From Confluentibacter lentus (lineage in GTDB: Bacteria > Bacteroidota > Bacteroidia > Flavobacteriales > Flavobacteriaceae): 64,000 bases of DNA. Positions 1,822 to 38,204 of this stretch are shown piece after piece (the first letter of the stretch is position 1; every line of letters starts with the position of its first letter). The position numbers were made by a program, and so were the translations under genes. The stretch is from the NCBI RefSeq assembly GCF_002806995.1, contig NZ_NIHE01000002.1:62001-126000 (forward strand). Reading direction: 5' to 3'. The notes beneath the pieces are model-generated. The model had not been told where the DNA came from and made no database searches. It saw only the letters and a program-made list of their open reading frames with translations.

Positions 1822-1857
1822 AAAAAAGTTAAAAATTAAAAGTTAAAAGTTAAAAGT
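1822..1857. repeat. Heptad repeat (TAAAAGT)n touching the obgE start codon
   Basis: Five 7-bp units follow each other from 1823: AAAAAGT, TAAAAAT, then TAAAAGT three times. The array begins next to the obgE ATG (complement of 1819-1821), so it forms the whole immediate 5' leader of obgE. The same unit in inverse orientation recurs at 38163-38204. Confidence 0.8.
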
Positions 1858-1881
1858 TTCTCTCTTTACTTTTAATCTCTT

Positions 1882-1908
1882 TGTCATTTCTGCAAAAGCA
1901 GGAATCCA
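1882..1908. repeat. REP-like hairpin element
   Basis: Bases 1886-1905 form an 8-bp stem (one G-T pair) around an AAAA loop, centred on CTGC-AAAA-GCAG, flanked by TGTC and TCCA. Elements of this look (TGTCATT-CCTGC...GCAGG-AATCC) are, from general knowledge, frequent between genes in Bacteroidota. It lies between hpt-adk and obgE. Confidence 0.6.
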
Positions 1909-1956
1909 TTTGGACAGATTTAGCAATAAGATTACTGCCTCCGCAAAAACGACAAA

Positions 1957-3072
1957 TTAAAGATTGTCGATGACTTTACTTAAACGACCCGTAATATCCT
2001 CAACACTTCCAACGCCATCAACACCAAAATATTTATTTTGAGCCGAATAGTAGTCTTTTAAAATGGCTGTTTTATTGTAATATTCCGTAATTCGATTTCT
2101 TATAATGGATTCATCGGCATCATCGGCTCTTCCACTAGTCTCACCTCTTTTTACTAGGCGTTTAACTAAAATATCATCATCTACTTCCAATGCAATCATA
2201 GCACTAATAGATGAATCTTTACTTTCCAATAAAATATCTAAGGCCTTTGCTTGTGCACTTGTACGTGGAAATCCATCAAAAATAAATCCATTTGCTGAGG
2301 CATTTTTTTCAACTTCAGCTTCCAACATATCAATCGTAACTTGGTCTGGAACTAACTCGCCTTTGTCCATATAAGATTTGGCCAACATTCCTAAAGCAGT
2401 TTCATTTTTAATATTGAATCTAAAAACATCGCCAGTAGAGATATGAACTAGATTATATTTTGTCTTTAAAAACTCTGCTTGCGTTCCTTTTCCTGCTCCT
2501 GGAGGCCCAAATAATACTAAATTTGTCATGAATTGTGTTTCTTTTATTTGATATATTTCTGGTAAATTTCTTCCTAATCCGTCGTAATCCAAACCATAGC
2601 CAACAATAAATTTATTAGGGATTTTCATGCCCACATAATGTATTTTGAAATCCTTTTTATAGGCCTCTGGCTTGTAAAAAAGCGTTGCTATCTTGAGTGA
2701 TTTGACTTTTTCGTTTTTAAAAATTCTGTGAACCTCTGCCAGCGTATTCCCTGTATCAATAATATCCTCTAAAACGACAACGGTTCGACCTTCTAAATTT
2801 TGGGTAAGCCCTATTAAACGCTGAATATCCTCAGTAGATTTCACGCCTTCATAAGATGCCAATTTTATAAAAGTGACTTCACAAGGTTTCGGATACTTTT
2901 TTACAAAATCACTGACAAACATAAACGACCCATTCAAAATCCCAACAAACACAGGAATATCATCTCCAGCATCTTTAGATATTTTGTCAACCATCTTATT
3001 AATGGCATTTTCAATGTCTTCAGATGAAATAAATGGTTTAAACTCTTTATGGTGCAGCTTTATCAGGCTCAT
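1957..3072 (-). CDS. hpt-adk: Fused hypoxanthine phosphoribosyltransferase / adenylate kinase
   Basis: 371 residues carry two complete enzymes. Residues 1-180 are a purine phosphoribosyltransferase with the PRPP loop LEDIIDTGNT (101-110); it would salvage hypoxanthine or guanine to IMP or GMP. Residues 182-371 are adenylate kinase: Walker A GPPGAGKGTQ (189-198), AMP-site segment FDGFPRT (265-271) and the LID region RGETSGRADD (309-318), a short LID without the four zinc Cys. Met182 is the position where a stand-alone Adk would start, but the frame runs through without a stop and I see no ribosome binding site there, so a single fused protein is the simpler reading. The fusion couples purine salvage to AMP phosphorylation. 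I believe similar fusions occur in other Flavobacteriaceae. Confidence 0.93.
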   Translation of the reverse strand: MSLIKLHHKEFKPFISSEDIENAINKMVDKISKDAGDDIPVFVGILNGSFMFVSDFVKKYPKPCEVTFIKLASYEGVKSTEDIQRLIGLTQNLEGRTVVVLEDIIDTGNTLAEVHRIFKNEKVKSLKIATLFYKPEAYKKDFKIHYVGMKIPNKFIVGYGLDYDGLGRNLPEIYQIKETQFMTNLVLFGPPGAGKGTQAEFLKTKYNLVHISTGDVFRFNIKNETALGMLAKSYMDKGELVPDQVTIDMLEAEVEKNASANGFIFDGFPRTSAQAKALDILLESKDSSISAMIALEVDDDILVKRLVKRGETSGRADDADESIIRNRITEYYNKTAILKDYYSAQNKYFGVDGVGSVEDITGRLSKVIDNL

Positions 3073-3152
3073 TTAAATTTTTTAAAGACGCAAAGATAAT
3101 CAATAGATTAACGAATACCCATTTTTTGATTTATGATTTAGGATATTAAATG

Positions 3153-3160
3153 TATTTTTG
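3153..3160 (+). promoter_or_regulatory. Promoter -7 box of purK
   Basis: TATTTTTG matches the Bacteroidota TAnnTTTG box and lies 32 bp before the purK ATG. A TTTG at 3125-3128 could be the -33 element, although the 24-bp spacing is longer than the usual 19-21. Confidence 0.5.
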
Positions 3161-3192
3161 CGTATCTAAAACTAGTTTCTGTAACTTATAAC

Positions 3193-4350
3193 ATGGCAAA
3201 TTACTTTTCTTCAAATTTTAAACTTGGTATTCTTGGTGGTGGTCAATTAGGAAAAATGCTGCTTTATGATACCAGAAAATTTGACATTTACACCTGTGTT
3301 TTAGAAGCCAGCGACGATGCGCCCTGTAAAATGGCATGCAATGAATTTCATTTAGGCAACTTAATGGATTATGATGCCGTTTACAATTTTGGAAAACAAG
3401 TGAATGTGCTCACTATTGAAATTGAAAACGTGAATGTGGATGCGCTAGAAGCTCTTGAAAAAGAAGGTGTGAAAGTTTATCCTGCTTCAAACACCTTACG
3501 AACCATTCAAAATAAAGCAACGCAAAAATTATTTTATGTTGATAATGATTTGCCTACATCAGCATTTACCCGTTTTGCGTTTACTTCTGAAATAACTGAA
3601 GCCATTGAACGTGAAAGTCTGTCATTTCCTTTTGTGTGGAAATGTGCCCAGTTTGGCTATGATGGCACAGGCGTGAAAATTGTAAAATCCTTTACAGATT
3701 TAGAAGGCTTACCAAATGTGGAATGTATTGCTGAAACCTTGGTGCCTTTTAAAAATGAATTGGCGGTTATTGTGGCTCGAAATGCCTCTGGAGACATAAA
3801 AACATATCCGGTTGTTGAAATGGAATTCCACCCAGAAGCGAACCAAGTAGAATATGTTATTTGCCCTGCGCGGATTTCGGAAGACGTCGCAAAAAAAGCA
3901 ACGGATATTGCTTTAAAAACTTCAAAAGCATTCAATCATGTTGGTTTATTGGCAGTGGAAATGTTTCAAACAGAAGATGATGAGATTTTAATAAATGAAG
4001 TCGCACCAAGACCCCACAATTCGGGACACCAAACTATAGAAGCTAGTTACACCTCGCAATTTGAACAGCATATTCGCGCTATTTTAAATTTACCTTTGGG
4101 AAGAACCGATAGTAAAGTTGGTGGCGTCATGGTAAATTTGGTAGGTGCGGAAGGGCATTCTGGGAATGTGGTTTATCAACATATTGAAACCATCATGAAA
4201 ATGGATGGGGTAACGCCACATATCTATGGCAAAAAACAAACCCGTCCGTTTAGAAAAATGGGCCATGTAACGATTGTGAACGAAGATTTAAATGAAGCTA
4301 GAAAAATAGCAGAACAAGTTAAAAACACTATTAAAGTTATAAGTGAATAA
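3193..4350 (+). CDS. purK: N5-carboxyaminoimidazole ribonucleotide synthase
   Basis: 385 residues, ATP-grasp fold. The N-terminal [11 protein letters not shown] motif (residues 11-21) is the PurK nucleotide-binding start, and [12 protein letters not shown] is the conserved C-terminal catalytic segment. The enzyme carboxylates AIR to N5-CAIR with ATP and bicarbonate in purine synthesis. purE follows 80 bp downstream on the same strand and performs the next step, so this is the standard purK-purE pair, here in the order purK then purE. Confidence 0.96.
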
Positions 4351-4361
4351 ATCACAAAAAA

Positions 4362-4430
4362 CAAGAACCAAATTCCAATTATTTCAGATTAATTCTAAAG
4401 TTGGTATTTGAATTTAAAATTTGGAATTTT
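4362..4430. repeat. Inverted pair of degenerate heptad repeats before purE
   Basis: The left arm (4362-4382) reads CAAGAAC, CAAATTC, CAATTAT. The right arm (4403-4430) reads GGTATTT, GAATTTA, AAATTTG, GAATTTT. Both have a 7-bp period, and the arms are approximately each other's reverse complement around CAAATTC/GAATTTG. The right arm ends one base before the purE ATG, so the purE leader could fold on itself. Confidence 0.6.
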
Positions 4431-4913
4431 ATGAATAAAGTAGCAGTAATCATGGGAAGCAAAAGCGATTTGCCAGTGATGCAAGACGCCGTTGATATTT
4501 TAAAAGATTTTAATATTGATGTGGAAGTTGATATTGTTTCGGCACACAGAACACCCGAAAAATTATTTGATTATGGCAAAAATGCCCACACCAGAGGCTT
4601 CTCGGTTATAATTGCCGGTGCTGGTGGCGCAGCCCATTTACCAGGTATGATTGCATCCTTATCACCATTACCTGTGATTGGTGTTCCTATAAAAAGTAGT
4701 AATTCTATTGATGGCTGGGATTCTGTGCTTTCCATTCTTCAAATGCCGGGTGGTGTACCAGTAGCAACCGTGGCGTTGAATGGCGCAAAAAATGCTGGTA
4801 TTTTAGCAGCCCAAATTCTTGGCACTTCTAATCCTGATATTTTAAACAAAGTGATTGATTACAAAAACGGACTTAAAGAAGCCGTACATACATCGGCTAA
4901 AAATTTAAAATAA
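4431..4913 (+). CDS. purE: N5-CAIR mutase
   Basis: 160 residues from the ATG at 4431. A TTG 30 bp upstream is in frame, but the family begins at [11 protein letters not shown], and the extra ten codons fall inside the repeat, so I prefer the ATG. GSKSD (residues 9-13) binds the phosphate and SAHRTP (37-42) holds the catalytic His39; [10 protein letters not shown] follows. This is the class I form that works with PurK. A hairpin terminator follows directly, so it ends the purKE unit. Confidence 0.95.
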
Positions 4914-4914
4914 A

Positions 4915-4940
4915 AAACCCCGAATATAAATTCGAGGTTT
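4915..4940 (+). terminator. Terminator after purE
   Basis: AAACC-C-CGAAT / ATTCG-A-GGTTT pair with one mismatch around an ATAA loop, directly after the purE stop. The T-tail is short. Confidence 0.65.
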
Positions 4941-5058
4941 ACTATCAAGTAATTATTTGAGCTAGTCACTCTTTAAAAACTAATTTAGACTACAAAAATA
5001 TAAAAAATTTATTATGCATACATAATAAATTTTATTTTTTAACACATTTTTTATCGAA

Positions 5059-7092
5059 ATGGAAAATATATTATTAAAAAATTACCAAACTCCATATAAT
5101 ACCGCTCCTTTTTCAAAAATTAGTAATAATGATTTTCTTCGCGCCTTTAAAAAAGCTATTGAAAATGCTAAAATTGAAATTGATGCCATCGTAAATACTT
5201 CTGAACAACCAACTTTTGAAAATACTATTGAAGCTTTAGAGTTTTCTGGTGAGCAATTAGATAGAATTTCCAGTATTTTCTTTAATTTGAATTCCGCTGA
5301 AACCAATGAAATCATTCAAAAAATAGCGCAAGAAGTATCGCCGCTTTTATCGGAATTCGGTAATGACATCACTTTAAATGAGGCGCTTTTCAAACGTATA
5401 AAATCTGTTTACGATTCAAAAGACACATTGAATTTAACAACCGAGCAACAAACACTGCTCGATAAAAAATATAAAAGTTTTTCTAGGAATGGGGCTAATT
5501 TGCCAGAAGATAAAAAAGAAAAATTACGCGAGATTGACAAAAAACTAAGTCAGCTGACATTAAAATTCGGTGAAAATGTATTGGCTGAAACCAATAAATT
5601 TGAAATGCTGATTACTGATGAAGCGGATTTGTCTGGTTTACCTGAAGGCGCGATTGAAGCCGCCAAACAATTGGCAGAATCCAAAGAAAAAGGCGGTTGG
5701 TTATTCACTTTAGATTACCCGAGCTATATTCCTTTTGTAACGTATGCCAATCATAGAGAACTTCGTAAAAAAATAACCATTGCTGCTGGGAAAAAAGGCT
5801 TTCATAATGACGAATTAGATAACCAAAACATTGTTTTACAAATTACAACGCTAAGACATGAACGTGCCAATCTGTTAGGTTACAAAACCCATGCACATTT
5901 TGTTTTGGAAGAGCGCATGGCAAAAACACCCGAAAAAGTTAAGAGCTTTTTAAATGAGTTACTTGTTAAAGCAAAACCAGCTGCTGAAAGAGAATTTAAA
6001 AATCTTCAAGATTTTGCCAAAGAATCAGATGGCATTCAACACCTTGAAAAGTGGGATGGCACCTATTATTCTGAAAAATTAAAACAAAAATTATTCAGTT
6101 TAGATGATGAAAAACTCAAACCGTATTTCAAACTAGAAAACGTGATAAACGGTGCTTTTACGGTTGCCAACAAATTATTCAATTTGCGTTTTGAAAAAAT
6201 TCAAACTATAGACAAATACCATGAGGATGTTTTAACCTATAAAGTCACAAACAGTAATGGCGAGTTTATTGCGATTTTTTACGCTGATTTCTTCCCTAGA
6301 AAGGGCAAACGAAATGGTGCGTGGATGACTTCCTATAAACCTCAATATATGAAAAATGGCCAACAAGAAAGACCACATATTTCCATAGTTTGTAACTTCA
6401 CCAAGCCAACCAAAAGCAAACCTTCACTTTTAACGTTTAATGAAGTGACTACATTGTTCCATGAATTTGGTCACGCTTTACATGGCATGTTAGCCAACAC
6501 CACCTACCCTAGTTTGTCTGGCACCAGCGTGTATTGGGATTTTGTTGAATTACCAAGTCAGGTTATGGAAAATTGGTGTTACGAAAAAGAGGCTTTGGAA
6601 TTATTTGCCACACATTATGAAACTGGCGAAGTCATTCCCATGGATTTGGTTGAAAAAATAAAAGAATCAGCCACCTTTTTACAAGGCATGCAAACCTTAC
6701 GACAAATCAGTTTCGGATTATTGGATATGAGCTGGCATGGTGGTGAATCGCCAGTGGCCATAAAATCCGTAAAGGAATTTGAAAATAACGCCTTTGCTGG
6801 CACACAACTCTACCCAGATGTTCCTGAAAATTGTATGAGTACATCCTTTTCCCATATTTTTCAAGGTGGCTATTCATCTGGGTATTACAGTTACAAATGG
6901 GCTGAAGTGCTGGATGCTGATGCCTTTGAATACTTTAAAGAATCTGGTATTTTCAATAAAGAAGTCGCAACCAAATTCAAAGATAATGTCTTATCGCAAG
7001 GTGGTACAGAAGACCCGATGGTACTTTACAAACGTTTTAGAGGCCAAGAACCTAAACCAGAGGCGTTGTTGAAGCGGGCGGGATTGATTTAG
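5059..7092 (+). CDS. M3 family oligopeptidase (Dcp / oligopeptidase A type)
   Basis: 677 residues, close to the usual 680 of the family. HEFGH lies at 468-472 and supplies the two zinc His and the catalytic Glu469; Glu497 in DFVELPSQ is the expected third zinc ligand. No signal peptide is seen (MENILLKNYQTPYNTAPF), so it is probably cytoplasmic and degrades short peptides. It starts 145 bp after purE with a terminator between, so it is likely its own unit. Whether it is a dipeptidyl carboxypeptidase (Dcp) or oligopeptidase A (PrlC) cannot be decided from motifs alone. Confidence 0.93.
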   Translation: MENILLKNYQTPYNTAPFSKISNNDFLRAFKKAIENAKIEIDAIVNTSEQPTFENTIEALEFSGEQLDRISSIFFNLNSAETNEIIQKIAQEVSPLLSEFGNDITLNEALFKRIKSVYDSKDTLNLTTEQQTLLDKKYKSFSRNGANLPEDKKEKLREIDKKLSQLTLKFGENVLAETNKFEMLITDEADLSGLPEGAIEAAKQLAESKEKGGWLFTLDYPSYIPFVTYANHRELRKKITIAAGKKGFHNDELDNQNIVLQITTLRHERANLLGYKTHAHFVLEERMAKTPEKVKSFLNELLVKAKPAAEREFKNLQDFAKESDGIQHLEKWDGTYYSEKLKQKLFSLDDEKLKPYFKLENVINGAFTVANKLFNLRFEKIQTIDKYHEDVLTYKVTNSNGEFIAIFYADFFPRKGKRNGAWMTSYKPQYMKNGQQERPHISIVCNFTKPTKSKPSLLTFNEVTTLFHEFGHALHGMLANTTYPSLSGTSVYWDFVELPSQVMENWCYEKEALELFATHYETGEVIPMDLVEKIKESATFLQGMQTLRQISFGLLDMSWHGGESPVAIKSVKEFENNAFAGTQLYPDVPENCMSTSFSHIFQGGYSSGYYSYKWAEVLDADAFEYFKESGIFNKEVATKFKDNVLSQGGTEDPMVLYKRFRGQEPKPEALLKRAGLI

Positions 7093-7098
7093 ATTTTT

Positions 7099-7138
7099 TG
7101 ACTTTTAGATGGTTAGACTAATTAGATTGGTAGACTAT
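7099..7138. repeat. Octad-like repeat after the M3 peptidase
   Basis: Five units of about 8 bp: TGACTTTT, AGATGGTT, AGACTAAT, TAGATTGG, TAGACTAT. GAC and GAT alternate at each step. It starts 6 bp after the stop codon. It resembles the heptad arrays elsewhere in the window but has a different period. Confidence 0.5.
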
Positions 7139-7197
7139 TAAATAACAAAGAATATAAATTTTTACCTTATTTTTGATTTACAAAAAATTGCACCATA

Positions 7198-7749
7198 ATG
7201 CCAGAGCATGAAATAAATCCTAGTAAATGGATTGATTTATATTCCGATTACCTTTTCAATTATACCATAACGCGTGTAAGTGATAGGGATTTGGCACAAG
7301 ATTTAGTGCAAGACACCTTTTTGGCTGGCTTGAAATCCATGAAGAATTTTAAAGGGGAAGCCAGTGAACGCACTTGGCTGATTTCCATTTTAAAGAGAAA
7401 AATCATAGACCATTACCGAAAAATAAACTCCAACAAAGGAAAAGCTGAAGTTAGAATTACATATTCCGATGATGAAAGCGAAGGTGATTGGCTCGAAGAA
7501 CGTGTCGCAGACCCCTTTGATAAAACGGCCGAAGACCTCATGCAGAATAGTGAACTTGGTGATGCTATTTTTGAATGCCTCAGCAAATTACCCGAAAAAC
7601 AAGCCCAAGTTTTCAGAATGAAAACCATTGAAGGCTATGAAACTGAAGATATTTGTAAAGAATTGAACATCAATGCGTCTAACCTTTGGGTTATAATTCA
7701 CCGTGCTAGAACGGCTATGGCTAGTTGCTTAGAAGAAAATTGGTTTTAA
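7198..7749 (+). CDS. ECF-type RNA polymerase sigma factor
   Basis: 183 residues. Region 2 covers about residues 16-60 (DLAQDLVQDTFLAGLKS), and region 4 sits near the C-terminus, with LPEKQAQVFRMK followed by an HTH ending in VIIHRARTAMASCL. The acidic insert DDESEGDWLEERVADPFD links them. A TATTTTTG box at 7168-7175 could be its promoter. The next gene starts 2 bp after its stop and encodes a small zinc-finger protein, as expected for a sigma/anti-sigma pair. The target regulon cannot be inferred from the window. Confidence 0.93.
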   Translation: MPEHEINPSKWIDLYSDYLFNYTITRVSDRDLAQDLVQDTFLAGLKSMKNFKGEASERTWLISILKRKIIDHYRKINSNKGKAEVRITYSDDESEGDWLEERVADPFDKTAEDLMQNSELGDAIFECLSKLPEKQAQVFRMKTIEGYETEDICKELNINASNLWVIIHRARTAMASCLEENWF

Positions 7750-7751
7750 TT

Positions 7752-8015
7752 ATGAGTATAAAAATGAAAATAATGGTTCCTTGTGATGAAGCTCATCATG
7801 TTTGCGATAAAACCCAATATAAAGAAAGTTCTTTTTGGGAAAAGTTAAAGCTTTATATCCATTTGATGTATTGCAAGGCATGCAGAAAATATACAAAAAA
7901 AAATAAAAAGCTTTCCAGCACCATCCATAAAGCAAAAGTAGAATGTCTAGACAAAAAGTGCAAGGAAGCTATGAAACAAGAATTCGAAAAAGCTTTAAAA
8001 GATCAATTGAAATAA
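7752..8015 (+). CDS. Small zinc-finger (ZAS-like) anti-sigma candidate
   Basis: 87 residues from the ATG at 7752; a longer in-frame start at 7725 would sit inside the sigma gene. The centre, HLMYCKACRKY, has the His-x3-Cys-x2-Cys spacing of zinc-binding anti-sigma domains. Upstream is CDEAHHVCDKTQYKE and downstream KVECLDKKCKEAMKQEFEKALK, giving extra Cys and His residues. No membrane segment or sensor domain is present, so if it is an anti-sigma factor it is a soluble minimal one. Coupling to the sigma gene is the main support for that role. The 3' end overlaps the next, convergent gene by 13 bp. Confidence 0.75.
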   Translation: MSIKMKIMVPCDEAHHVCDKTQYKESSFWEKLKLYIHLMYCKACRKYTKKNKKLSSTIHKAKVECLDKKCKEAMKQEFEKALKDQLK

Positions 8016-8845: not shown

Positions 8846-8931
8846 TTTACAAAAATAAGCAAACTGTTAATAACGCTTTTAAATGGTTAAAAACTTTCAT
8901 TTTTTGAACCAAAAAAGCGTCATTATTTACG

Positions 8932-11914: not shown

Positions 11915-12973
11915 ATGAATATCAAAATAACCGGAACAGGAAGTTACATTCCAGACATTATCGAAAAAAACGAAAATTTCCAAAATCATGAATTCTTAAA
12001 TAGCGATGGTTCAACCATAAATCATTCCAATGATGTTATTATTGAGAAATTCAAAGCAATCACTGGCATAAGAGAAAGACGCTACGCCAAGCCTCATTTG
12101 AACTCATCAGACATGGCGTTTTTTGCTGCTGAACGTGCCATTGTAGATTCTAAGATAAATCCAGAAGAGTTAGATTATATTATTGTTGCCCATAATTATG
12201 GTGATGTTACGACGGATTCCCACCAAAGTGACACCGTGCCAAGTATTGCCTCTAGAGTGAAACATTTATTGGGAATTAAAAATCCTAAATGCGTTGGATA
12301 TGATATTTTGTTTGGTTGTCCGGGATGGGTTGAAGCTGTAATCCAAGCTTCGGCTTATATCAAGGCCGGCATGGCAAAAAAATGTTTAGTTATAGGTTCT
12401 GAAACATTATCCAGAGTTCTTGATCCGCATGACAGGGATTCCATGATTTATAGTGATGGTGCTGGTGCCGTTATAGTAGAATCCACCAATTTGGAAGGCG
12501 GTATCCTTGCTCATGAAACGGCTACGTATGCGTTTGATGAAGCCCACTATATTTATTTTGGTGAAACCAATAATCAAGAATCAAAAAGCAAAAGGCGTTA
12601 TATAAAAATGTATGGTAGAAAGATTTATGAATTCGCCATTACAAACGTTCCTGCCGCTATGAAATCCTGTTTGGACGCAAGTGGTATTGATATTAAAGAT
12701 CTTAAAAAAATACTCATACATCAAGCTAATGAAAAAATGGACGAAGCTATTGTTCAGCGTTTTTTCAAATTACATGGTATGGAGACCCCAAAAGGGATCA
12801 TGCCCATGACCATCAATGAACTAGGTAATTCTAGTGTGGCAACCATTCCCACGTTGTTTGATCGCATTTTGAAAGGCGAACTTGAAAACCAAACTATTAG
12901 TAAAGGTGATGTTATTATGTTTGCAAGTGTGGGTGCCGGCATGAATATTAATGCTATTGTTTATCAGGTTTGA
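11915..12973 (+). CDS. 3-oxoacyl-ACP synthase III family protein (FabH-like)
   Basis: 352 residues, thiolase fold. The catalytic triad is visible: Cys135 in FGCPGW, His269 in LIHQAN and Asn305 in ELGNSS. Family members condense an acyl-CoA with malonyl-ACP; FabH does this at the start of fatty acid synthesis. This copy is longer than housekeeping FabH (~320-335) and has FGCPGW rather than the common ACAG/ACSG context, so a specialised lipid or polyketide role is possible. It is not in a fab cluster. It converges on the flippase gene and overlaps its 3' end by 20 bp. Confidence 0.88.
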   Translation: MNIKITGTGSYIPDIIEKNENFQNHEFLNSDGSTINHSNDVIIEKFKAITGIRERRYAKPHLNSSDMAFFAAERAIVDSKINPEELDYIIVAHNYGDVTTDSHQSDTVPSIASRVKHLLGIKNPKCVGYDILFGCPGWVEAVIQASAYIKAGMAKKCLVIGSETLSRVLDPHDRDSMIYSDGAGAVIVESTNLEGGILAHETATYAFDEAHYIYFGETNNQESKSKRRYIKMYGRKIYEFAITNVPAAMKSCLDASGIDIKDLKKILIHQANEKMDEAIVQRFFKLHGMETPKGIMPMTINELGNSSVATIPTLFDRILKGELENQTISKGDVIMFASVGAGMNINAIVYQV

Positions 12974-16215: not shown

Positions 16216-16239
16216 GCTTCGACTGCGCTCAGCATGACA
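16216..16239. repeat. REP-like element, copy A (CGACTGCGCTCAGC core)
   Basis: The 24-bp element has ATGCT/AGCAT ends (16214-16235) that can pair. In reverse complement it matches a second copy at 31072-31095, with the shared parts TGTCA and GCAGTCGAAG. Confidence 0.6.
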
Positions 16240-16241
16240 CC

Positions 16242-16355
16242 AACAACTAACAACCAACAGCTAACAGCTAACAACTAACAACTAACAACTAACACAACTA
16301 ACAACTAACAACTAACAACTAACAACTAACAACTAACAACTAACAACTAACAAAA
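16242..16355. repeat. Tandem heptad array (AACAACT)n
   Basis: About 16 units of 7 bp fill the space up to the nuclease stop codon. The left units vary (AACAACC, AACAGCT). One unit at 16291-16299 has a 2-bp insertion (AACACAACT). The right units are perfect. The array runs exactly to the TTA that is the complement of the nuclease stop. There are no spacers, so it is not CRISPR. Confidence 0.95.
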
Positions 16356-17162
16356 TTAATTAAAACTCCAATCCTTGTAATTACTAGTTGCTTCCAGTTT
16401 ATTTTCCAAACTATCCTCTAATTGTGGAAAAAAATCAATGCCTGTTAATGCTTCAATGGAATCGACCGACACCACAAACTCATATAATGGTTTATTGGAT
16501 GTTTCATGTGGTATTAAAAAAGCAATCATTTTGGCTTCTCCTGTATTATCAATTAATACTTTATAAAACTGTTTCGGCACAGCAACTTGTTCCTCACCAA
16601 TAGTTTTCATCTGTCCTTTTAAAACACCACCAGTAACCACAAAAACACCATCATATTTACTAGCCCAATAACGTACTTTTTGTTCTAATCGGTTCCAAAT
16701 TCCAGAATTAAAATCATGCTCTTGCGGGCTAATATTACTGGTTAAAAAAGTTTCGTCGTGGGCAGACTGATTGTAGTTTCTATCGCCTGCTGGACACAAA
16801 TGTCCGCGGTCATAACCAGAATTTTTATAGTTTCTCCAATCGGCCGCACCCGTTTTTACAGCGGTATCAATTTCAAAATAAGGACGCTTAAAATTGCTAT
16901 TGGAAAGATGCTCCTTTTTTAATTCGTAGGCCACCCATTCGGCTTGCTCGTGCGGTTCACTATACGACAAAGAGTATCCTTGATGATGAATTATTTGTCC
17001 TGTTGTACTTGTTGGAAGAAAATATTCATTAGTATCACTTTTAGGGTTTTTACCAGAATCAACCAATACGGTTTTTTCTTCATCTTTTAAAAAATGTTCA
17101 TAGCCATATATGCTTAAAATAAGGCCAATGGCAATTAAAGAATATATGGTTTTCTTACTCAA
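16356..17162 (-). CDS. DNA/RNA non-specific endonuclease (beta-beta-alpha metal), membrane-anchored
   Basis: 268 residues. An uncleaved N-terminal helix (TIYSLIAIGLILSIYGY, residues 5-21) suggests anchoring with the enzyme outside the cytoplasm. The NucA/EndoG signature DRGHLCPAGD (118-127) contains the general base His121, and the downstream SGIWNRLE holds the metal-binding Asn. It starts 1 bp after the pafA stop, so the two are one operon. That suggests nucleotide release from extracellular DNA followed by phosphate removal by PafA. Its 3' end is bounded by the heptad array. Confidence 0.92.
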   Translation of the reverse strand: MSKKTIYSLIAIGLILSIYGYEHFLKDEEKTVLVDSGKNPKSDTNEYFLPTSTTGQIIHHQGYSLSYSEPHEQAEWVAYELKKEHLSNSNFKRPYFEIDTAVKTGAADWRNYKNSGYDRGHLCPAGDRNYNQSAHDETFLTSNISPQEHDFNSGIWNRLEQKVRYWASKYDGVFVVTGGVLKGQMKTIGEEQVAVPKQFYKVLIDNTGEAKMIAFLIPHETSNKPLYEFVVSVDSIEALTGIDFFPQLEDSLENKLEATSNYKDWSFN

Positions 17163-28718: not shown

Positions 28719-29972
28719 ATGTGGTTTAATGTTCTCAAAAATACAGTTTTCCCGATAACTATCGGAATTGTTTTGGTACTTATTTCTTGTGGGAACACGG
28801 GAAAGACGGGAGACGGAATACCCAAGACCCAAAACCTAACACCAAAAACCCAAGACCCAAGACCCATAGCGGTAGGTGCCAATCAAACAGAAACATACAT
28901 ATCCTTACTTAAAGGAAAACGCATTGGAATTGTCGCAAATCCAACAAGTGTGATATTTAAAGCAAATATTAAAAACTATACACATTTAGTGGATTCATTA
29001 TTGGCATTAAAGATTAAAATTTCCAAAGTATTTTCTCCTGAACATGGGTTTCGGGGAACTGCAGATGCTGGCGAACTTATTAATGATAGTAAAGATGCCA
29101 AAACAGGATTATCGATTGTATCACTTCATGGCGAACACAGAAAACCAAAATTGGAAGACTTAGCAAATATTGATGTGATGGTTTTTGATTTGCAAGATGT
29201 TGGCGTTCGTTTTTACACCTATATCTCAACTTTACATTACGTTATGGAAGCCTGTGCAGAAGCCAAGATTCCATTGATTATCTTAGACCGACCCAACCCG
29301 AATGGCAGTTACATTGATGGTCCAACATTAGAAATAGAAAACCAAAGTTTTTTAGGAATGCACCCCATTCCGTTAGTTCATGGCATGACAATTGGTGAAT
29401 ATGCTAAAATGATTAATGGCGAAACATGGTTAAAAAATGGTGTGCAATGCCAAATGACCGTGATTCCTGTTAAAAATTACAACCACAGTATGCCATACAG
29501 TTTACCCATCAGACCTTCGCCGAACTTACCAAACGATCAATCCATAAGATTATACCCCAGTCTTGGTTTGTTTGAAGGCACGGATATTAATGCAGGAAGA
29601 GGTACCGAGTTTCAATTTCAGAGATATGGCGCTCCTTTTTTGGATAAAAAAGTGTTTAACTTTACTTATACGCCTGTTGAAAATTTTGGAGCTAAAAATC
29701 CGAAACACAAAGGCAAACTTTGTTATGGTGAAGATTTAAAAAACGACAAAACAACAAATCAAGTGAGTTTGAAATGGCTTATTAAAGCTTATAACAATGC
29801 CACCGATAAATCGAAAGTTTTTAATACTGCTAATTTCACAAAACATGCTGGCACAGATAAACTTCAAAAACAAATTGAAGCAGGTTTAACTGAAGAGCAA
29901 ATTAAAGCCACTTGGCAAAAAGGAATTGAAACCTTTAAAAACACACGTAAAAAATATTTAATTTATAAATAA
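28719..29972 (+). CDS. namZ: NamZ-type exo-beta-N-acetylmuramidase (DUF1343), lipoprotein
   Basis: 417 residues. Residues 1-24 are a lipoprotein signal with lipobox LISC (Cys24). After a ~26-residue linker the DUF1343 domain starts (SLLKGKRIGIVANPTSV); VMVFDLQDVGVRFYTYISTLHY and RPNPNGSYIDGP are typical. DUF1343 proteins such as Tannerella NamZ release N-acetylmuramic acid from the non-reducing end of peptidoglycan fragments, so a role in cell-wall recycling or scavenging is likely. The linker is encoded by a heptad repeat, and the signal region contains CCGATA-AC-TATCGG. The stop shares a base with the next gene's ATG (TAATG). Confidence 0.9.
   Translation: MWFNVLKNTVFPITIGIVLVLISCGNTGKTGDGIPKTQNLTPKTQDPRPIAVGANQTETYISLLKGKRIGIVANPTSVIFKANIKNYTHLVDSLLALKIKISKVFSPEHGFRGTADAGELINDSKDAKTGLSIVSLHGEHRKPKLEDLANIDVMVFDLQDVGVRFYTYISTLHYVMEACAEAKIPLIILDRPNPNGSYIDGPTLEIENQSFLGMHPIPLVHGMTIGEYAKMINGETWLKNGVQCQMTVIPVKNYNHSMPYSLPIRPSPNLPNDQSIRLYPSLGLFEGTDINAGRGTEFQFQRYGAPFLDKKVFNFTYTPVENFGAKNPKHKGKLCYGEDLKNDKTTNQVSLKWLIKAYNNATDKSKVFNTANFTKHAGTDKLQKQIEAGLTEEQIKATWQKGIETFKNTRKKYLIYK
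28806..28868 (+). repeat. Heptad repeat inside namZ (ACCCAAG type)
   Basis: Nine 7-bp units: ACGGGAG, ACGGAAT, ACCCAAG, ACCCAAA, ACCTAAC, ACCAAAA, ACCCAAG, ACCCAAG, ACCCATA. They are translated in frame as residues 30-50, giving a seven-residue echo (PKTQNLT, PKTQDPR) just after the lipid-modified Cys. Confidence 0.9.
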
Positions 29973-31175: not shown

Positions 31176-31183
31176 ACATTTGT

Positions 31184-31678: not shown

Positions 31679-31695
31679 GGTGTAAAAATAATAAA

Positions 31696-31817: not shown

Positions 31818-31831
31818 CAATAACGATAAAT

Positions 31832-32527: not shown

Positions 32528-33099
32528 ATCTAAAATGACCAATTATTTTAAACTTAAACAAACAATCTTCTAAAACTTGTCCACTACCAATATTGTGAAC
32601 AATCAAATATCTTTTTCCATCGCTTGATTTCCTATTGACTACAATGCCAATATGTGTTATGGCACCGCCAAGATTCCAACAAACTATATCTCCAGGCATA
32701 TAATCTTTTGAATCATTTGTTATTGGTTTAGTAGCCCCTTGGCGCTCAAAATAAGTCATCAAATTTGGAACACGTCTATGATCAATATTCTTATCTGTTG
32801 TTTTCAAACCCCATTTTTTTTGGATATATATTGAAATGAGCTTTCATATCTTCATGAACTTCTTTTTGTAAATCAATACCCAGTTTTCTATAAGCTCTAA
32901 TTATAACATCAGTGCAAACGCCCTTATCACTTGGAACATCTCCATTGGGATAATTAATTGAAAAATAACTTGGGTCGTAAACTACTTTATGTTTAGTTAA
33001 TTCTAAAGCAGCTTCAGAAAGGTTTAATTTTTGAATAACGTTTTGTGAAAAACAAAAACTAAAGCATAGAAATAAAATGATAAAGAATATCTTTTTCAT
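32514..33099 (-). pseudogene. DUF1287 (NlpC/P60-like) protein split by a frameshift
   Basis: Two frames make one protein. The N-terminal part (33099-32791) has a signal peptide and the likely catalytic Cys in DKGVCTDVIIRAYRKLGID. The C-terminal part (from about 32813) has PGDIVCWNLGGAITHIGIVV and IVHNIG with the His. They meet at an A8 run (complement of 32814-32821). With A7 the frame continues PKKWGLKTTDKNIDHRRVPN; with A8 it reads MGFENNR and stops. So this is a pseudogene, a sequencing error, or a slippage-controlled gene. The family resembles cell-wall amidases. Confidence 0.85.
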
Positions 33100-33143
33100 T
33101 TAAATATGAATTTCAATTGATGAGATTCACTCCTTCGCGGGAA

Positions 33144-34871
33144 TTAAAAATCAAATTTATAAGTCGCTCCAGCTAAAAACTGCATACTTTGTACTGGGAA
33201 ATTTTGCCAACGTTGATACCCTTGATTCGCTAAGTTATTGCCTTTAGCAAATACCGATAACTGGTCATTAATATGATACCCTAAATGCGCATTGGCATCA
33301 AAATAGCTATCTAAAGTTACTGTAAATGGTGAAGCCACAGTAATACCGTCATTTAAATATAGTTGGTCTTTACGTTCCCCAATGTAAAATAAATTAGCCC
33401 CTGCATACCATTTATCACTTATTTGGTAATCTAAAAACACAGAACCCTTAGTATCTGGCAAGTTCCAAGCTTCCGCTTGTGTATCAGACGAATAATCAAA
33501 ATATTCTAATTTTATTCCTAATGTGAAATTTCGGTTTACATCTACATTAATTTCACCCGCGATACTGTATGTTTTCACATCATCATATACAATTCCAAAT
33601 GAGTTTCCATACGAGTAATTCTGTAAATTATTAGAGGTTATTTCATTATTTCTAAATAAGGCTTTATCTCTATCGGAAATATATCTTCCACTAAAATTAT
33701 AACTCATATGACTGGACACTTTTCCTTTCAAACCAATAAATGCATTATATAATTGGTCGGTTGGCTGAATGAATAATGTTGGTGACACAAACGGATTTTC
33801 AGTAGCAAAACCATAATAGGAATTCTGGATTAAGTCACCTTGAATACCACCATACGCAATTAAAATATCATTCACCAATCGGTAGGTCGCCGTAACATTT
33901 GGATAGACAAAAATTTTGTTATCACCACCATGTGTATCATTTAAATAAAAAACCGAGGCTCCTAAATTAACGGTTAAATCATCTCGTTTCATTTCATAAG
34001 CAGATGATAATCCCACAAAAAAGTTTCCATATTTTAATTCTTCATCAATTTCGAAACTTCTATCAAAATTACCTCCTAAATAATCAAACTTTAAAACCGT
34101 AGCCAATTCTTCGTCACTATTAATAGGAATATCGGCTTTAACTTGAGCTGTAAATCTATTTTCCCTAGACTCTTGATTATCTCCAAAGTGTCTAAAAAAT
34201 ACATTGGCGGAATTTATATAGGTATCGTTAAAAGTAATATCACTGCCCAAATGCGCTCCAAAAAAGGAATGCCCCACACCAATTTGATCTGCTTCAGCTT
34301 CATCCAATTGAAATTCTGGCACACCATACCAATTATAAGTCTGCTGCTGAGCTCCAGCCTCCACATTCCATGTTAAATCCCTTAGGCGAGATCCATAATT
34401 TAAATTAAGTTTTGAATTAGAAAAGTTGTCATCAAGCAGTAAATTTTCAATACCGCCTTGTGACGAATGATGGCTTATATAACCACCAAAACTTTCCGTT
34501 CTGCTTAACGCATGACTCACATACACTTCACCCAAAATAGTCGTGTACGTGCCAACGCCGACCGTCGCATAATTATCAAATATTTTTTCTGGTGCTTTCT
34601 GTTCCACAACTGCCGCTTTTCCTTTGGCTGGTGTAAACGTTGATGCCACAGGAATTGAAAATATATTGTATTTTATTTCCTTTTTATTGGCAGTAACCTC
34701 ATCATCTAAATTAGGAATTTCTTTCACTTTAAAAGCATCAGAAATAGAAGGGGTATATGGTTTCACAACATCTATAACGCCTGTTCTTATAGTATCCCTA
34801 TCTTGAGAAAACACCACTGTTATATTTAAAGTTACCGCTAGTAATATGATATTTTTTATGTGCTTACGCAT
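33144..34871 (-). CDS. TonB-dependent-receptor-like outer membrane beta-barrel
   Basis: 575 residues. A signal peptide (ILLAVTLNITVVFSQ) is followed by an ordered region IDVVKPYTPSISDAFKVKEIP and then about 450 residues of alternating beta strands ending GATYKFDF, with the terminal Phe typical of outer-membrane barrels. No plug domain is visible at this length, so this is a barrel-only relative of TonB receptors. It lies 95 bp downstream of the TPR gene on the same strand, with a heptad repeat in between; such TPR plus barrel pairs recur in Flavobacteriaceae. The substrate is unknown. Confidence 0.85.
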   Translation of the reverse strand: MRKHIKNIILLAVTLNITVVFSQDRDTIRTGVIDVVKPYTPSISDAFKVKEIPNLDDEVTANKKEIKYNIFSIPVASTFTPAKGKAAVVEQKAPEKIFDNYATVGVGTYTTILGEVYVSHALSRTESFGGYISHHSSQGGIENLLLDDNFSNSKLNLNYGSRLRDLTWNVEAGAQQQTYNWYGVPEFQLDEAEADQIGVGHSFFGAHLGSDITFNDTYINSANVFFRHFGDNQESRENRFTAQVKADIPINSDEELATVLKFDYLGGNFDRSFEIDEELKYGNFFVGLSSAYEMKRDDLTVNLGASVFYLNDTHGGDNKIFVYPNVTATYRLVNDILIAYGGIQGDLIQNSYYGFATENPFVSPTLFIQPTDQLYNAFIGLKGKVSSHMSYNFSGRYISDRDKALFRNNEITSNNLQNYSYGNSFGIVYDDVKTYSIAGEINVDVNRNFTLGIKLEYFDYSSDTQAEAWNLPDTKGSVFLDYQISDKWYAGANLFYIGERKDQLYLNDGITVASPFTVTLDSYFDANAHLGYHINDQLSVFAKGNNLANQGYQRWQNFPVQSMQFLAGATYKFDF

Positions 34872-34878
34872 ATGTTTT

Positions 34879-34958
34879 GAATTACGATTTTTGATTTACG
34901 ATTTACAATTTTTGATTTACGATTGCCATTTCACGTTTCACATTTCACGATTCACGAC
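34879..34958. repeat. Heptad repeat (GATTTAC type) between the TPR and barrel genes
   Basis: Eleven consecutive 7-bp units: GAATTAC, GATTTTT, GATTTAC, GATTTAC, AATTTTT, GATTTAC, GATTGCC, ATTTCAC, GTTTCAC, ATTTCAC, GATTCAC, then GAC. The unit drifts from TTTAC to TTTCAC along the array. It ends 8 bp from the barrel start codon and fills most of the spacer inside this probable operon. Confidence 0.9.
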
Positions 34959-34966
34959 TAAAAAAA

Positions 34967-37900
34967 CTAATTGCCTTCTTCTGTTCTAACCGATGAATTT
35001 GTTTTAGATTCTTCAGCTTTAATTTTGGTTAATTCAGCTTTAGCTTCAGAAACCACATCGGTAAATTCCGGGAAATTCTGAATGACGCTTTCTAAAATAT
35101 AAGTGGCTTGGAACGCATCTTTTAAGGCATAAAAATTCTTAGCCATAAGCACCAACCCTTTGGCACTATAATATTTATATCCTGAAAAATCTTTAGCTAG
35201 CTTTTGAACGGCAGTATTTGATGCTTCAAACTTGCCTTCCTTGTTTTTAAAATAGGCGTTGTAATAAAGTGCTTCGGCAGCTGTTTCTCCCGTTGCTACT
35301 TCTTCCACTTTAGCAAAAGCTGTTTTAGCTCTAGCTTCATCATTCATTTTTATGGCAGAACGTGCAATAATAACATGGGCATCACTCTTGATTTTATTAT
35401 CAATTTTTGAATTCGCCAATACTTTCTCAGCATAAGCAATCGCATCAGTATATTTTTCCAATTGGTATTGCGCTTTCATTAAATTCGACTGTGCAAACAC
35501 GACGTTTTGAGGCAAACTGGCATCCTGCTCCAAACGTTTTAACAACGGAATAGCTGCATTCCAATTTTTTGCTTCCAAATAATGTTGGGACAAACGAGCC
35601 AACGCTTCTTCGGTAAATTCACTTTGTGATGTCTCCACGACGTACTTATAGTGTGGTGCGGCATTCTCGGTCAATCCTTGCTTATAATACATTTGAGCCA
35701 CATAAAAATGCGCTTGTAACGCATGTTGTCCGTTAGGGAATTGCGTTAAATACCCATTAAATTGTTTAATTGCTTTATCCGTGTTATTATCCAAATACTG
35801 TTTTTCGGCCGCCTCATAAGTCGCGTTATCTAAATCGGAGTCCGTCACATTCACAAAATCCAATGTTTTGGCCCAAGCAGCATATTCATCTACACGTCCC
35901 ATATCAATATAAATAAGTCTAGCCGTAGATACTGCCTGAACAGCTTCTGGAGTTCCAGCATAATCAGTTGCTACTTTTTTAAACTTCGTTAAAGCTTGTT
36001 CGTTGTTGCTACCGTTGTAATACACCAAGCCTTGACGCAATAATCCTTTTGGCACGAAGGAACTCATTCTATATTCACTTGCCAATCTGTCATACATGGC
36101 CATAGCTTTATCATTTTGATTCGCTTTTACATACGAATTACCCAACTCGTACATGGCATCATCACGAAGTTTAGACGTTGGATATTTTGAAATAAATTGT
36201 TCTAAATCTGATATTTTTTTGGAATCATTTCCTCCATAACCCGTACTAATGGCTTTTTGAAAAAACGGATAATCGGAATCTATTTCGTTTAATTTAATCG
36301 CATTATCATAAGCTTTAGCAGCATCATTATAATCGCTAGAAACAAAGTAGGTATCACCCAAACGTAGATAAGCATCGTTCAATCTTACTTTATCATCTTT
36401 TCTTTTATTGATGAATTGATTGAAATGTTGACTTGCTTGTGGATAATTTTTAAGTTTAAAATAAGTATAAGCCAGATTATAATCAATGTTGATATTTTCA
36501 GGCGTTGTTGAAGCTGATGATTGTTGCGCAAATTGTTTAAACCCAACCAAAGCATCATTATAATTATTTAAATTATAATCCGTTTCAGCTTTCCAAAAGG
36601 TGGCTCTAGCAGTGTAATTGTTATCTCTTTGTTCTTTCAAAGATCTATCAAAAAGCGATTTAGCCTCTAAATAGTTACCTTCATTATAAACTTCCAAACC
36701 TCTATAAAACGCTACTTTTTGCAAAGCTACTTTGTTTTCAAAACTATTTTTACCTTCTAAAAGTCTAAGGGCTTCTTTATAATTTTTAGACGTGATGTAA
36801 GAATCGATTAAAAGCGTCTCAATTTCTTCCTTGTAACTGGTTTTCGGATACTTGTTTAAATATTCCGCCAAAACTTGAGGCGCCGATTGGTATGGATTCC
36901 CGATTTCATAACTAATCTTAGCATAATTTAGCCAAGCATCTTCCTGAATCTTTAAATCGTATGTCATTTGCGATGCATTTCTAAACGCATTTAAAGCTTC
37001 TGGCTTTTTGCCAAGTTTAATATAGCTTTCACCCAAATGATAATAGGCGTTTTGAGCCGTAGCATCGTTTCCTCCAACTATTTTATTGAATTCTGAAATA
37101 GCATTTTCATAATCGCCTTGCTTGTAATGCGCATAGCCTAATTGGTAAAAATCAATATTGTTCCACTTGCCATTTTTGCCTTTATAAGCTTTTAAATATG
37201 GAAGAGCCGCAGCATAATCTTTTAAATTGAAATAACTTTCACCAATGATTTTTGAAAGTTCGGACACTTCACTTTCATCACCTTTAGCCAATTGCTCTTT
37301 GGCGAGTTTGATGGCTTCTTCAAATTTACCAAGTCTGAAGTTTAAATCCGCTTGATAATAAGACAGTTTTTCTTTGTAACGCTCTTGATCGGTTACTTGG
37401 TCAAAATACTGGTTTGCGGTTTCATAATCATTACCTTCATAAGCCATAAAACCAATATAATATTTAGCTTGGGAACCATATTCTTGGGAATTTTCAACCT
37501 TGGCCAAATATTGTTTAGCTTCTTTATATTGTTTAGCCGAAAAAGCGGAATACCCATAATTAAAATTGAATTTTTCCTTTTCTTTTCTACTTAAAGCATC
37601 TTCATCAACCTTCGCATACCATTTTAATGCATGCGGAAATTTTCCGTTCACGAAATAATAATCGGCTACATCTACAAAAGCTGTATTTCGCTTGGTACTT
37701 GTTGGATATTCTTCAACAAAATCCTCTACCAATCTATCGGCATTTTGTTGGTTCAACCGTACGGCACAATTGGCAATATAATAGGCGCAATCTGACTTTA
37801 AAACGTCTTCTTTAGCTGTTTTTTGAACGGTGCTAAATAAGGATTGTGAAGCTAAATATTGCTGATTGTTATATAACGTTAATGCTTTTTGAAAATCTAC

Positions 37901-37993
37901 CAAATCATTGGTGTATGTTGCAGATTGCTGTGCTATAACCTGATAGCAAAAAATGAAAGCAATCAAGAGGGACATATGATTATTTTTTGTCAT
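34967..37993 (-). CDS. Secreted tetratricopeptide-repeat protein
   Basis: 1008 residues from the ATG at 37993 (a TTG lies two codons upstream), with signal peptide MSLLIAFIFCYQVIAQ. The whole body is TPR units with the pattern A..Y..A..F (for example YYHLGESYIKLGKKPEALNAF and AYTYFKLKNYPQASQHF), roughly 20 repeats. It is likely periplasmic or an outer-membrane-associated scaffold working with the downstream barrel. A TATCTTTG box stands 26 bp upstream. Very long TPR proteins of this kind are common in this family; no specific function is known to me. Confidence 0.88.
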   Translation of the reverse strand: MTKNNHMSLLIAFIFCYQVIAQQSATYTNDLVDFQKALTLYNNQQYLASQSLFSTVQKTAKEDVLKSDCAYYIANCAVRLNQQNADRLVEDFVEEYPTSTKRNTAFVDVADYYFVNGKFPHALKWYAKVDEDALSRKEKEKFNFNYGYSAFSAKQYKEAKQYLAKVENSQEYGSQAKYYIGFMAYEGNDYETANQYFDQVTDQERYKEKLSYYQADLNFRLGKFEEAIKLAKEQLAKGDESEVSELSKIIGESYFNLKDYAAALPYLKAYKGKNGKWNNIDFYQLGYAHYKQGDYENAISEFNKIVGGNDATAQNAYYHLGESYIKLGKKPEALNAFRNASQMTYDLKIQEDAWLNYAKISYEIGNPYQSAPQVLAEYLNKYPKTSYKEEIETLLIDSYITSKNYKEALRLLEGKNSFENKVALQKVAFYRGLEVYNEGNYLEAKSLFDRSLKEQRDNNYTARATFWKAETDYNLNNYNDALVGFKQFAQQSSASTTPENINIDYNLAYTYFKLKNYPQASQHFNQFINKRKDDKVRLNDAYLRLGDTYFVSSDYNDAAKAYDNAIKLNEIDSDYPFFQKAISTGYGGNDSKKISDLEQFISKYPTSKLRDDAMYELGNSYVKANQNDKAMAMYDRLASEYRMSSFVPKGLLRQGLVYYNGSNNEQALTKFKKVATDYAGTPEAVQAVSTARLIYIDMGRVDEYAAWAKTLDFVNVTDSDLDNATYEAAEKQYLDNNTDKAIKQFNGYLTQFPNGQHALQAHFYVAQMYYKQGLTENAAPHYKYVVETSQSEFTEEALARLSQHYLEAKNWNAAIPLLKRLEQDASLPQNVVFAQSNLMKAQYQLEKYTDAIAYAEKVLANSKIDNKIKSDAHVIIARSAIKMNDEARAKTAFAKVEEVATGETAAEALYYNAYFKNKEGKFEASNTAVQKLAKDFSGYKYYSAKGLVLMAKNFYALKDAFQATYILESVIQNFPEFTDVVSEAKAELTKIKAEESKTNSSVRTEEGN

Positions 37994-38019
37994 TGACAAT
38001 TCGTTTTTAATTTAAAAAT

Positions 38020-38027
38020 CAAAGATA
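38020..38027 (-). promoter_or_regulatory. Promoter -7 box of the TPR gene
   Basis: TATCTTTG on the minus strand, a perfect TAnnTTTG, ending 26 bp before the ATG at 37993. Confidence 0.6.
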
Positions 38028-38097
38028 ATTTAATATAAACCCTATAACGCAACAATTGGGATAGAATTATAAACCGACTTATTAAAAGTTGAAAAAA

Positions 38098-38204
38098 GAT
38101 GGGAGGCCGAAGACGAAAGACGGAAGATAGGAGACTGAAGAATTCAAAAAAAATGATGCTTAAATTCAACTTTTACCTTTTAACTTTTAACTTTCAACTT
38201 TTAA
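38098..38204. repeat. Two adjacent heptad arrays of different unit
   Basis: 38098-38146 reads GATGGGA, GGCCGAA, GACGAAA, GACGGAA, GATAGGA, GACTGAA, GAATTCA. After 16 bp, 38163-38204 reads AATTCAA, CTTTTAC, CTTTTAA, CTTTTAA, CTTTCAA, CTTTTAA. The second is the reverse complement of the obgE-leader repeat. They lie between the divergent TPR gene and ftsE. Confidence 0.9.

What the first reader, a model, noticed from the sequence alone, without database searches (positions are those of the whole stretch)
1822..38204. A shared 7-bp period in degenerate tandem repeats of unrelated unit sequence
At least six arrays obey a strict 7-bp step: 1823-1857 (TAAAAGT), 4362-4430 (CAAATTC/GAATTTG), 16242-16355 (AACAACT), 28806-28868 (ACCCAAG), 34879-34958 (GATTTAC), 38098-38146 (GACGAAA) and 38163-38204 (CTTTTAA). 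The unit differs but the period does not, and units drift along an array while keeping register. Several abut start or stop codons. Constant period with variable sequence points to a common copying mechanism rather than chance slippage, which in AT-rich DNA would favour 1-3 bp units. Cyanobacterial STRR heptamers are the nearest known analogue; I know of no described mechanism in Flavobacteriaceae.
Basis: partly seen in the sequence, partly recalled or inferred. Interest (0 to 1): 0.75.

Follow-up and report, generated by a model that had tools for sequence, protein, structure and literature searches.

The report
Seven-letter repeats pointing out of genes
The window's short tandem repeats really share a seven-base step; they belong to a widespread but unexplained class of bacterial intergenic repeat, and here and in distant bacteria they tend to sit against gene ends with the G-bearing strand reading away from the gene, a clue to how they form.

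Summary
The 7-bp step is real: the window has 6 period-7 stretches (one in coding sequence) and none at periods 6 or 8; 838 kb of the same genome gives 14, against 0-3 at any other period and 0 in one shuffle. One of the seven listed arrays (4362-4430) fails. Heptamers as the commonest intergenic tandem repeat of prokaryotes, without known function, are already published (PMC6344855), so these are members of a known kind.

What the calls add: (1) at several orthologous sites in congeneric genomes the unit is replaced while the step stays. (2) A polarity rule: within 8 nt of an ORF end the G-bearing strand reads outward from the gene (starts 91/93, stops 148/167); opposite-polarity neighbours in one intergenic region run G-type then C-type 102 times, the reverse 6 times, mostly with non-complementary units. 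It holds in Bacteroidota, Cyanobacteria and a few others. Rehm 2015 reported two parts of it for one heptamer in Xanthomonas. (3) A purine/pyrimidine grammar, RRYRRYY, mainly cyanobacterial.

Best explanation (0.35): 7-nt slippage of 3' ends pointing from gene ends into non-coding gaps. Main rival: selection on mRNA leaders and tails. RVT_1 was found in 1 of 5 and Ku in 0 of 5 congeneric genomes.

The parts
1824..1858 (+). AAAAGTT array, 5 units, 2 nt from the start of the minus-strand ORF 823-1821; G-strand reads outward
   Evidence: same unit at the orthologous site in G001 and G003, replaced in G002
16239..16353 (-). AACAACT array (about 16 units), 2 nt from the stop of the minus-strand ORF 16356-17162; G-strand (AGTTGTT) reads outward
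   Evidence: different unit at the same site in G001, mixed units in G003
28804..28866 (+). degenerate AGACCCA/AGACGGG array inside ORF 28719-29972, after a stretch that reads like a lipoprotein signal (reading by eye)
   Evidence: G001 has AGACNNN units there
34882..34924 (+). GATTTAC array (weakly G-type, G 5 C 4) near the start of the minus-strand ORF 33144-34871
34929..34957 (-). TTTCACG array (C-type on +), 9 nt from the stop of the minus-strand ORF 34967-37999; with the previous part a G-then-C pair
38098..38146 (+). degenerate GAAGACN array (G-type on +), shared with G004, absent from G001, G002 and G003
38168..38204 (-). AACTTTT array (C-type on +), 40 nt before the start of ORF 38245-38928; with the previous part a G-then-C pair
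   Evidence: present in G001-G004

Best explanation
The arrays are intergenic heptameric simple sequence repeats made by a local, sequence-tolerant copying step of 7 nt (rarely 8) that acts on DNA 3' ends pointing from a gene end into the neighbouring non-coding gap, the G-bearing strand being the one that grows. Both gene ends can be extended, so intergenic regions end up G-type from the left and C-type to the right, with one switch between. Expansion starts from short seeds, units drift and are replaced, and erosion of non-coding DNA up to the last essential base (inferred) leaves the arrays against ORF ends. No dedicated reverse transcriptase or Ku end-joining is needed, so an ordinary replication or repair polymerase slipping by 7 nt is the likely agent (inferred). 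Shown: period, polarity, position, unit turnover. Inferred: 3'-end growth, the enzyme, the ratchet towards ORFs.
For: Polarity: within 8 nt of an ORF end G outward in 91 of 93 start-adjacent and 148 of 167 stop-adjacent arrays (534 of 641 arrays counted, rest dropped as listed); non-array windows give 467/726, 89/138, 124/237 at starts and 274/595, 60/108, 118/195 at stops (genus, Bacteroidota, Cyanobacteria). Pair order in one intergenic region: G then C 102, C then G 6; in convergent regions, which hold no start codon, 25 to 3. Facing arrays are usually not complementary: 8 of 81 reach 13 or 14 of 14, so hairpins do not explain the order. Position: 45-58% of arrays within 8 nt of an ORF end against 8-22% for random placement in the four larger sets. 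Edges: beyond the 5' edge of the G strand lag-7 identity falls to 0.287, beyond the 3' edge to 0.431; for arrays over 40 nt from ORFs 0.323 against 0.373, p 0.0008, n 155. Gaps between some facing arrays are themselves degenerate 7/8-mers with a single G-to-C switch (L240, L243, L263; read by eye). RVT_1 in 1 of 5 and Ku in 0 of 5 genomes.
Against: Pairs with both outer edges over 60 nt from ORFs: 7 to 3 only, p 0.34. The edge asymmetry far from ORFs fades when arrays with a neighbour within 30 nt are dropped (0.306 against 0.325, p 0.18, n 110). No gradient of unit divergence along arrays (p 0.30, p 0.31; genus alone p 0.044). Arrays 9-60 nt from a stop show no rule (35 of 63; 2 of 13 in the genus), nor do arrays over 60 nt away (65 of 144). 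The indel spectrum between own genome and relatives has no clear 7-bp peak (10 of 165; 4, 5 and 6 bp: 12, 11, 14) and two-copy lag-7 runs are not in excess, so a general 7-nt slip is not seen at the birth step. The birth at L270 is a clean gain of units without loss of flank, which plain slippage explains. Rehm 2015 found few paired repeats in Nostoc.
Confidence: 0.35

Rival explanations
1. Selection on transcripts. Heptamers arise by slippage in either orientation; upstream of start codons only A/C-type, G-poor leaders survive (no spurious starts, no structure), and after stop codons G/U-type tails are kept for an unknown reason.
For: The start rule is nearly absolute (91 of 93 within 8 nt, 63 of 67 at 9-60 nt) and stronger than the stop rule; polarity vanishes away from ORF ends. 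Non-array windows at starts already lean the same way in two of three sets (0.64, 0.65, 0.52).
Against: The rule also holds next to stops (148 of 167) and in convergent regions (25 to 3), where no leader exists and the background has no consistent lean (0.46-0.61). No known selection explains G-type tails.
Confidence: 0.3
2. Ordinary replication slippage with a 7-nt preference set by the polymerase footprint (the proposal of Mrazek and colleagues 2007, known to me through PMC4679880), with position and orientation neutral.
For: Own genome against relatives: unit-number changes in same-unit arrays (C1:11907, L253/L262, L257, L270); 14- and 21-bp higher-order periods; cited for 7 nt as polymerase contact length.
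Against: Does not predict polarity or hugging of ORF ends; indels between relatives show no 7-bp peak; the favoured unit does not follow seed frequency (AAAAGTT 10 of 614 seeds, but in 7 of 17 own arrays).
Confidence: 0.25
3. A dedicated templated system (telomerase-like or other reverse transcriptase) writes the repeats.
For: G-bearing strand outward from an end, as at telomeres; one favourite unit per lineage (AAAAGTT in 5 of 5 congeners).
Against: RVT_1 found in only 1 of 5 congeneric genomes, three of the four negatives at least 99% complete; facing arrays at one site carry different units; units drift within arrays.
Confidence: 0.05

Closest known systems
Intergenic heptamer tandem repeats of prokaryotes (SPADE survey, PMC6344855, passages seen; Mrazek 2007, not held, known through PMC4679880)
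   Same: Tandem DNA units of 7 bp, intergenic, across many prokaryotes; function stated to be unknown
   Different: Polarity relative to gene ends, unit turnover at orthologous sites and the purine/pyrimidine grammar are not in the passages I saw
GGGAATC repeats of Xanthomonas and GGGGA(C/T)T of Nostoc (Rehm 2015, PMC4692102, sections 10 and 11 and passages read)
   Same: Heterogeneous heptamers; in Xanthomonas 70 and 75 convergent pairs, and repeats 28 nt on average from the 5' neighbouring ORF against 160 nt from the downstream one: the same polarity
   Different: One G-rich unit read as a quadruplex; pairs read as inverted repeats that could form stem-loops; here units are AT-rich, lack quadruplex tracts in the main and facing units differ. 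Few pairs in Nostoc
TAACTGA direct repeats (MacGregor 2015, PMC4679880, passages seen)
   Same: Heptamer arrays near start codons in Beggiatoaceae, Cyanobacteria and five Bacteroidetes, with shorter repeat-free intergenic regions in relatives
   Different: One fixed unit; TAACTGA is absent from the vocabulary collected here
Cyanobacterial STRR sequences (recalled; named in listings)
   Same: Heptameric tandem repeats in filamentous cyanobacteria
   Different: Defined by particular unit sequences; in this genus the favourite is AAAAGTT

Membership tests
Intergenic heptameric simple sequence repeats | Tandem units of 7 bp in excess over other periods | tested here: met
   14 against 0-3 in 838 kb; 107 against 0-17 in 400 kb of Tychonema
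Intergenic heptameric simple sequence repeats | Mostly outside genes | tested here: met
   26 of 641 arrays dropped as inside ORFs; one window array, 28804-28866, is inside an ORF
Cyanobacterial STRR | The named STRR unit sequences (recalled) | tested here: inconclusive
   The unit I recall, CCCCAGT, occurs once in the cyanobacterial vocabulary and not in the genus; other STRR units not tested
TAACTGA repeats | Unit TAACTGA | tested here: not met
   0 in all four groups of the vocabulary
G-quadruplex heptamers (GGGAATC, GGGGATT) | Runs of three or more G in each unit | tested here: not met
   GGGAATC and GGGGATT absent, GGGGACT once in cyanobacteria; main window units have no G run
Retroelement or telomerase product | A reverse transcriptase in every genome with arrays | tested here: not met
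   RVT_1 in 1 of 5 congeneric genomes, all 5 with AACTTTT arrays
Phase-variable repeats | Copy number switching within a strain with effect on expression | not testable with these tools
   One genome per species; no reads or expression data

The most novel reading that the evidence does not exclude
Bacterial intergenic heptamers are telomere-like end additions: at breaks or gaps between genes both 3' ends are extended outward with short G-bearing repeats and then joined, so that much non-coding DNA in these lineages is repeatedly rewritten as two facing 'caps'. This would be a general, Ku-free way of rebuilding intergenic DNA shared by distant phyla.
Probability: 0.2. Interest if true: 0.85.

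Novelty: new member of a known kind. Interest (0 to 1): 0.6.

Why it matters
Why heptamers dominate intergenic tandem repeats in prokaryotes is stated in print as an open question (PMC6344855). A polarity rule that can be scored in any genome gives a direct test between DNA-level growth at ends and selection on transcripts, and it shows that intergenic DNA in these genomes is rewritten quickly with a fixed step while the flanking genes stay in place.

Tried and rejected
Core-plus-variable-columns model: within-array changes fall unevenly on the 7 columns when counted as events (1753 against 1379), but distinct alleles do not (303 polymorphic columns against 315 expected), so recurrent shuffling of old variants explains most of it. 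Poly-unit mutation: two-difference steps lean to neighbouring columns (85 of 200 against 67), weak.

Born degenerate: 38098-38146 is a gain shared by the window and G004 and is diverged within, 10 of 48 positions differing between them against 93% identity of the locus. Fast decay after a regular birth fits as well; not claimed.

Anticodon-loop templates (CTTTTAA for AACTTTT and the like): recalled resemblance only; AACAACT, the unit most widely found, does not fit; dropped without a test. Hairpins or terminators from facing arrays: 8 of 81 pairs complementary. tRNA test: 22 tRNA/tmRNA genes, none near an array. Element CTTCGACTGCGCTCAGC beside 16239: 5 places in 838 kb, one beside an array. 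Coding stretch 12565-12596: protein-conserved.

A claim limit: that the polarity rule as a general rule is not in print rests on seven searches of the open library and on four papers seen in part; Rehm 2015 holds two pieces of it.

Weaknesses of the counts: the genus set holds orthologous sites several times and was enriched by fetching AACTTTT arrays; the 119 loci were chosen by (AACAACT)4; the Tychonema stretches come partly from contigs known to hold AACAACT, and that genome had already given some of the 119 loci (one overlapping locus was dropped). Restricted to the own genome the rule holds in 17 of 19 (within 40 nt). ORFs are mechanical (ATG to stop, 90 codons or more).

Full report
Observation. 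The window is G000:C12:62001-126000 of a 3.35-Mb genome in 32 contigs with four congeners held. Tandem Repeats Finder and a lag scan find the listed arrays except 4362-4430. At >=17 of 21 lag matches the window has 6 stretches at period 7, 0 at 6 and 8; one of the 6 is coding. In 838 kb of the genome, period 7 has 14, period 21 has 3, all others from 2 to 24 have 0 or 1, and a shuffle has 0.

Spread. In the first 80 of these loci, other units at period 7 number 111 (cyanobacteria, 344 kb), 24 (Bacteroidota, 207 kb) and 5 (others, 45 kb); period 8 has 17, 2 and 1, period 14 has 25, 4 and 1, the rest 0 to 4. AACTTTT is the favourite of this genus: 5 of 5 genomes, but 9 of 148 genomes across the phylum, with 3 of 148 ringing for the reversed control. 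The favourite does not follow the supply of seeds: AAAAGTT makes up 10 of 614 short lag-7 seeds in non-coding DNA but occurs in 7 of 17 own arrays, while AAAAAAT, 39 seeds, has none listed.

Where the preference lies. Short lag-7 runs of 8-11 matches are not in excess in own non-coding DNA (11, against 7, 12 and 6 at lags 5, 6 and 8), whereas runs of 14 or more number 6 against 0, 0 and 1. Among 165 indels of 3-40 bp between the own genome and relatives 10 are 7 bp long, 14 are 6, 11 are 5, 12 are 4, 2 are 8. So the step is favoured in amplification, not in every small duplication.

Turnover. Alignments of orthologous sites: at 16242 the window has AACAACT and G001 a GAACCTA-type array; at the own L021 site the own genome, G001 and G002 have three different units; at L017 the own genome differs from G001 and G002. 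Other sites keep the unit and change its number (C1:3354 unchanged in G001; C1:11907; L253/L262; C23:118180). The GAACCCA/AACTTTT and GAAGACN/AACTTTT arrays occur as neighbours at more than one locus. 38098-38146 is present in G004 and absent from G001, G002 and the more distant G003, so it is a gain in the window's branch.

Polarity. Arrays lie against ORF ends: 51% (genus), 58% (Bacteroidota), 50% (cyanobacterial loci) and 45% (first 400 kb of Tychonema) within 8 nt, against 22, 21, 14 and 8% for random placement; small sets (others 55 against 27, Olivibacter 33 against 8, n 9) are not significant. Reading outward from the nearest ORF end, G exceeds C in 91 of 93 arrays within 8 nt of a start and 148 of 167 within 8 nt of a stop; at 9-60 nt 63 of 67 and 35 of 63; beyond 60 nt 65 of 144. 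These are 534 of 641 arrays; 66 lacked a flanking ORF on one side, 26 lay in ORFs, 13 had G equal to C, 2 were equidistant. By set within 8 nt (start; stop): genus 23/23; 17/18, Bacteroidota 10/10; 17/20, cyanobacterial loci 33/33; 57/66, others 2/2; 3/4, Tychonema 23/25; 54/59. Own genome alone, within 40 nt: 17 of 19. Non-array windows lie between 0.46 and 0.65. Olivibacter gives 7 of 8 within 120 nt.

Pairs. Neighbouring arrays in one intergenic region are G then C 102 times, C then G 6, same type 47 (29 GG, 18 CC); convergent 25 to 3, divergent 6 to 0, co-directional 71 to 3. With both outer edges over 60 nt from ORFs it is 7 to 3, not significant. The facing units are complementary over 13-14 of 14 bases in 8 of 81 pairs. 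In the window, 34882-34957 and 38098-38204 are G-then-C pairs.

Edges. Lag-7 identity just outside arrays near ORFs is 0.287 on the 5' side of the G strand and 0.431 on the 3' side; part of this is trivial because the 5' side is often coding. Over 40 nt from ORFs it is 0.323 and 0.373 (p 0.0008, n 155), 0.306 and 0.325 (p 0.18, n 110) without near neighbours. There is no gradient inside arrays.

Grammar. Of 102 distinct units at least two changes from AACAACT, 27 are of the purine/pyrimidine class RRYRRYY against 9.4 in shuffles (maximum 21 of 500 shuffles), and RRYRYRY has 0 against 10.9. In Tychonema 20 of 44 against 5.3. Background heptamers have 13 and 7%. It is mainly a cyanobacterial trait: 21 of 66 there, 4 of 22 in Bacteroidota, 1 of 16 in the window's genus, where RRRRRYY and RRRRYYY lead.

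Mechanism. RVT_1 is found in the own genome only, 1 of 5, and Ku in 0 of 5 (G004 is 70% complete). A symmetric outward polarity at starts and stops, single G-to-C switches and different facing units fit growth of 3' ends pointing from gene ends into gaps; selection on leaders explains starts well, stops poorly. The decisive far-pair test is too small. I put the end-growth reading at 0.35 and selection at 0.3.

Known. [quoted passage not shown] MacGregor (PMC4679880, passages) gives heptamers in Beggiatoaceae, Cyanobacteria and five Bacteroidetes and cites Mrazek 2007 for slippage at a 7-nt polymerase contact. Rehm (PMC4692102, sections 10 and 11) reports for Xanthomonas convergent pairs (70 and 75 cases) and a 28-nt average distance to the 5' neighbouring ORF against 160 nt downstream, and few pairs in Nostoc. 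So the arrays are members of a known kind; the general polarity, seen over AT-rich units and several phyla, is what these calls add.

Noticed in passing
window 4362-4430: Conserved inverted repeat (AAATTCCAAT...ATTTGGAATTT) between two plus-strand ORFs, kept in G001, G002 and G004 and absent from G003; not a heptamer array.
   Followed up: partly
window 28804-28866: Heptamer array inside ORF 28719-29972, in what reads like the linker after a lipoprotein signal; G001 has AGACNNN units there, G002 a longer degenerate version.
   Followed up: partly
window 16217-16233: CTTCGACTGCGCTCAGC-type sequence beside the AACAACT array; 5 places within 3 mismatches in 838 kb.
   Followed up: partly
G002 ortholog of window 1822 (L079 region): The AAAAGTT array is replaced by about 300 bp that begins with a period-8 array (GTTTAATT/GTTTAATC).
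   Followed up: no
L231 (G000:C2 127637-127673) and L207 (G003:C34 end): Contigs end at AACTTTT arrays, so arrays may break assemblies and be undercounted.
   Followed up: no
L103 6303-7237 (Winogradskyella pacifica): About 0.9 kb of successive heptamer arrays, six G-type then one C-type, units changing from AAGANNC to GAGCTAA to AACAACT.
   Followed up: no
L164 1411-1524 (Maribacter): One array whose units drift step by step from TCTTTCC to AACACTG while the 7-bp register holds.
   Followed up: no
G000:C28:64348-64701: The only RVT_1 match in the genus sample, in a 537-aa open frame.
   Followed up: no
cyanobacterial loci: Period-8 arrays such as AAGGAGTG are the second class (22 perfect runs); 8 of 8 scored within 40 nt of an ORF end had G outward.
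   Followed up: partly
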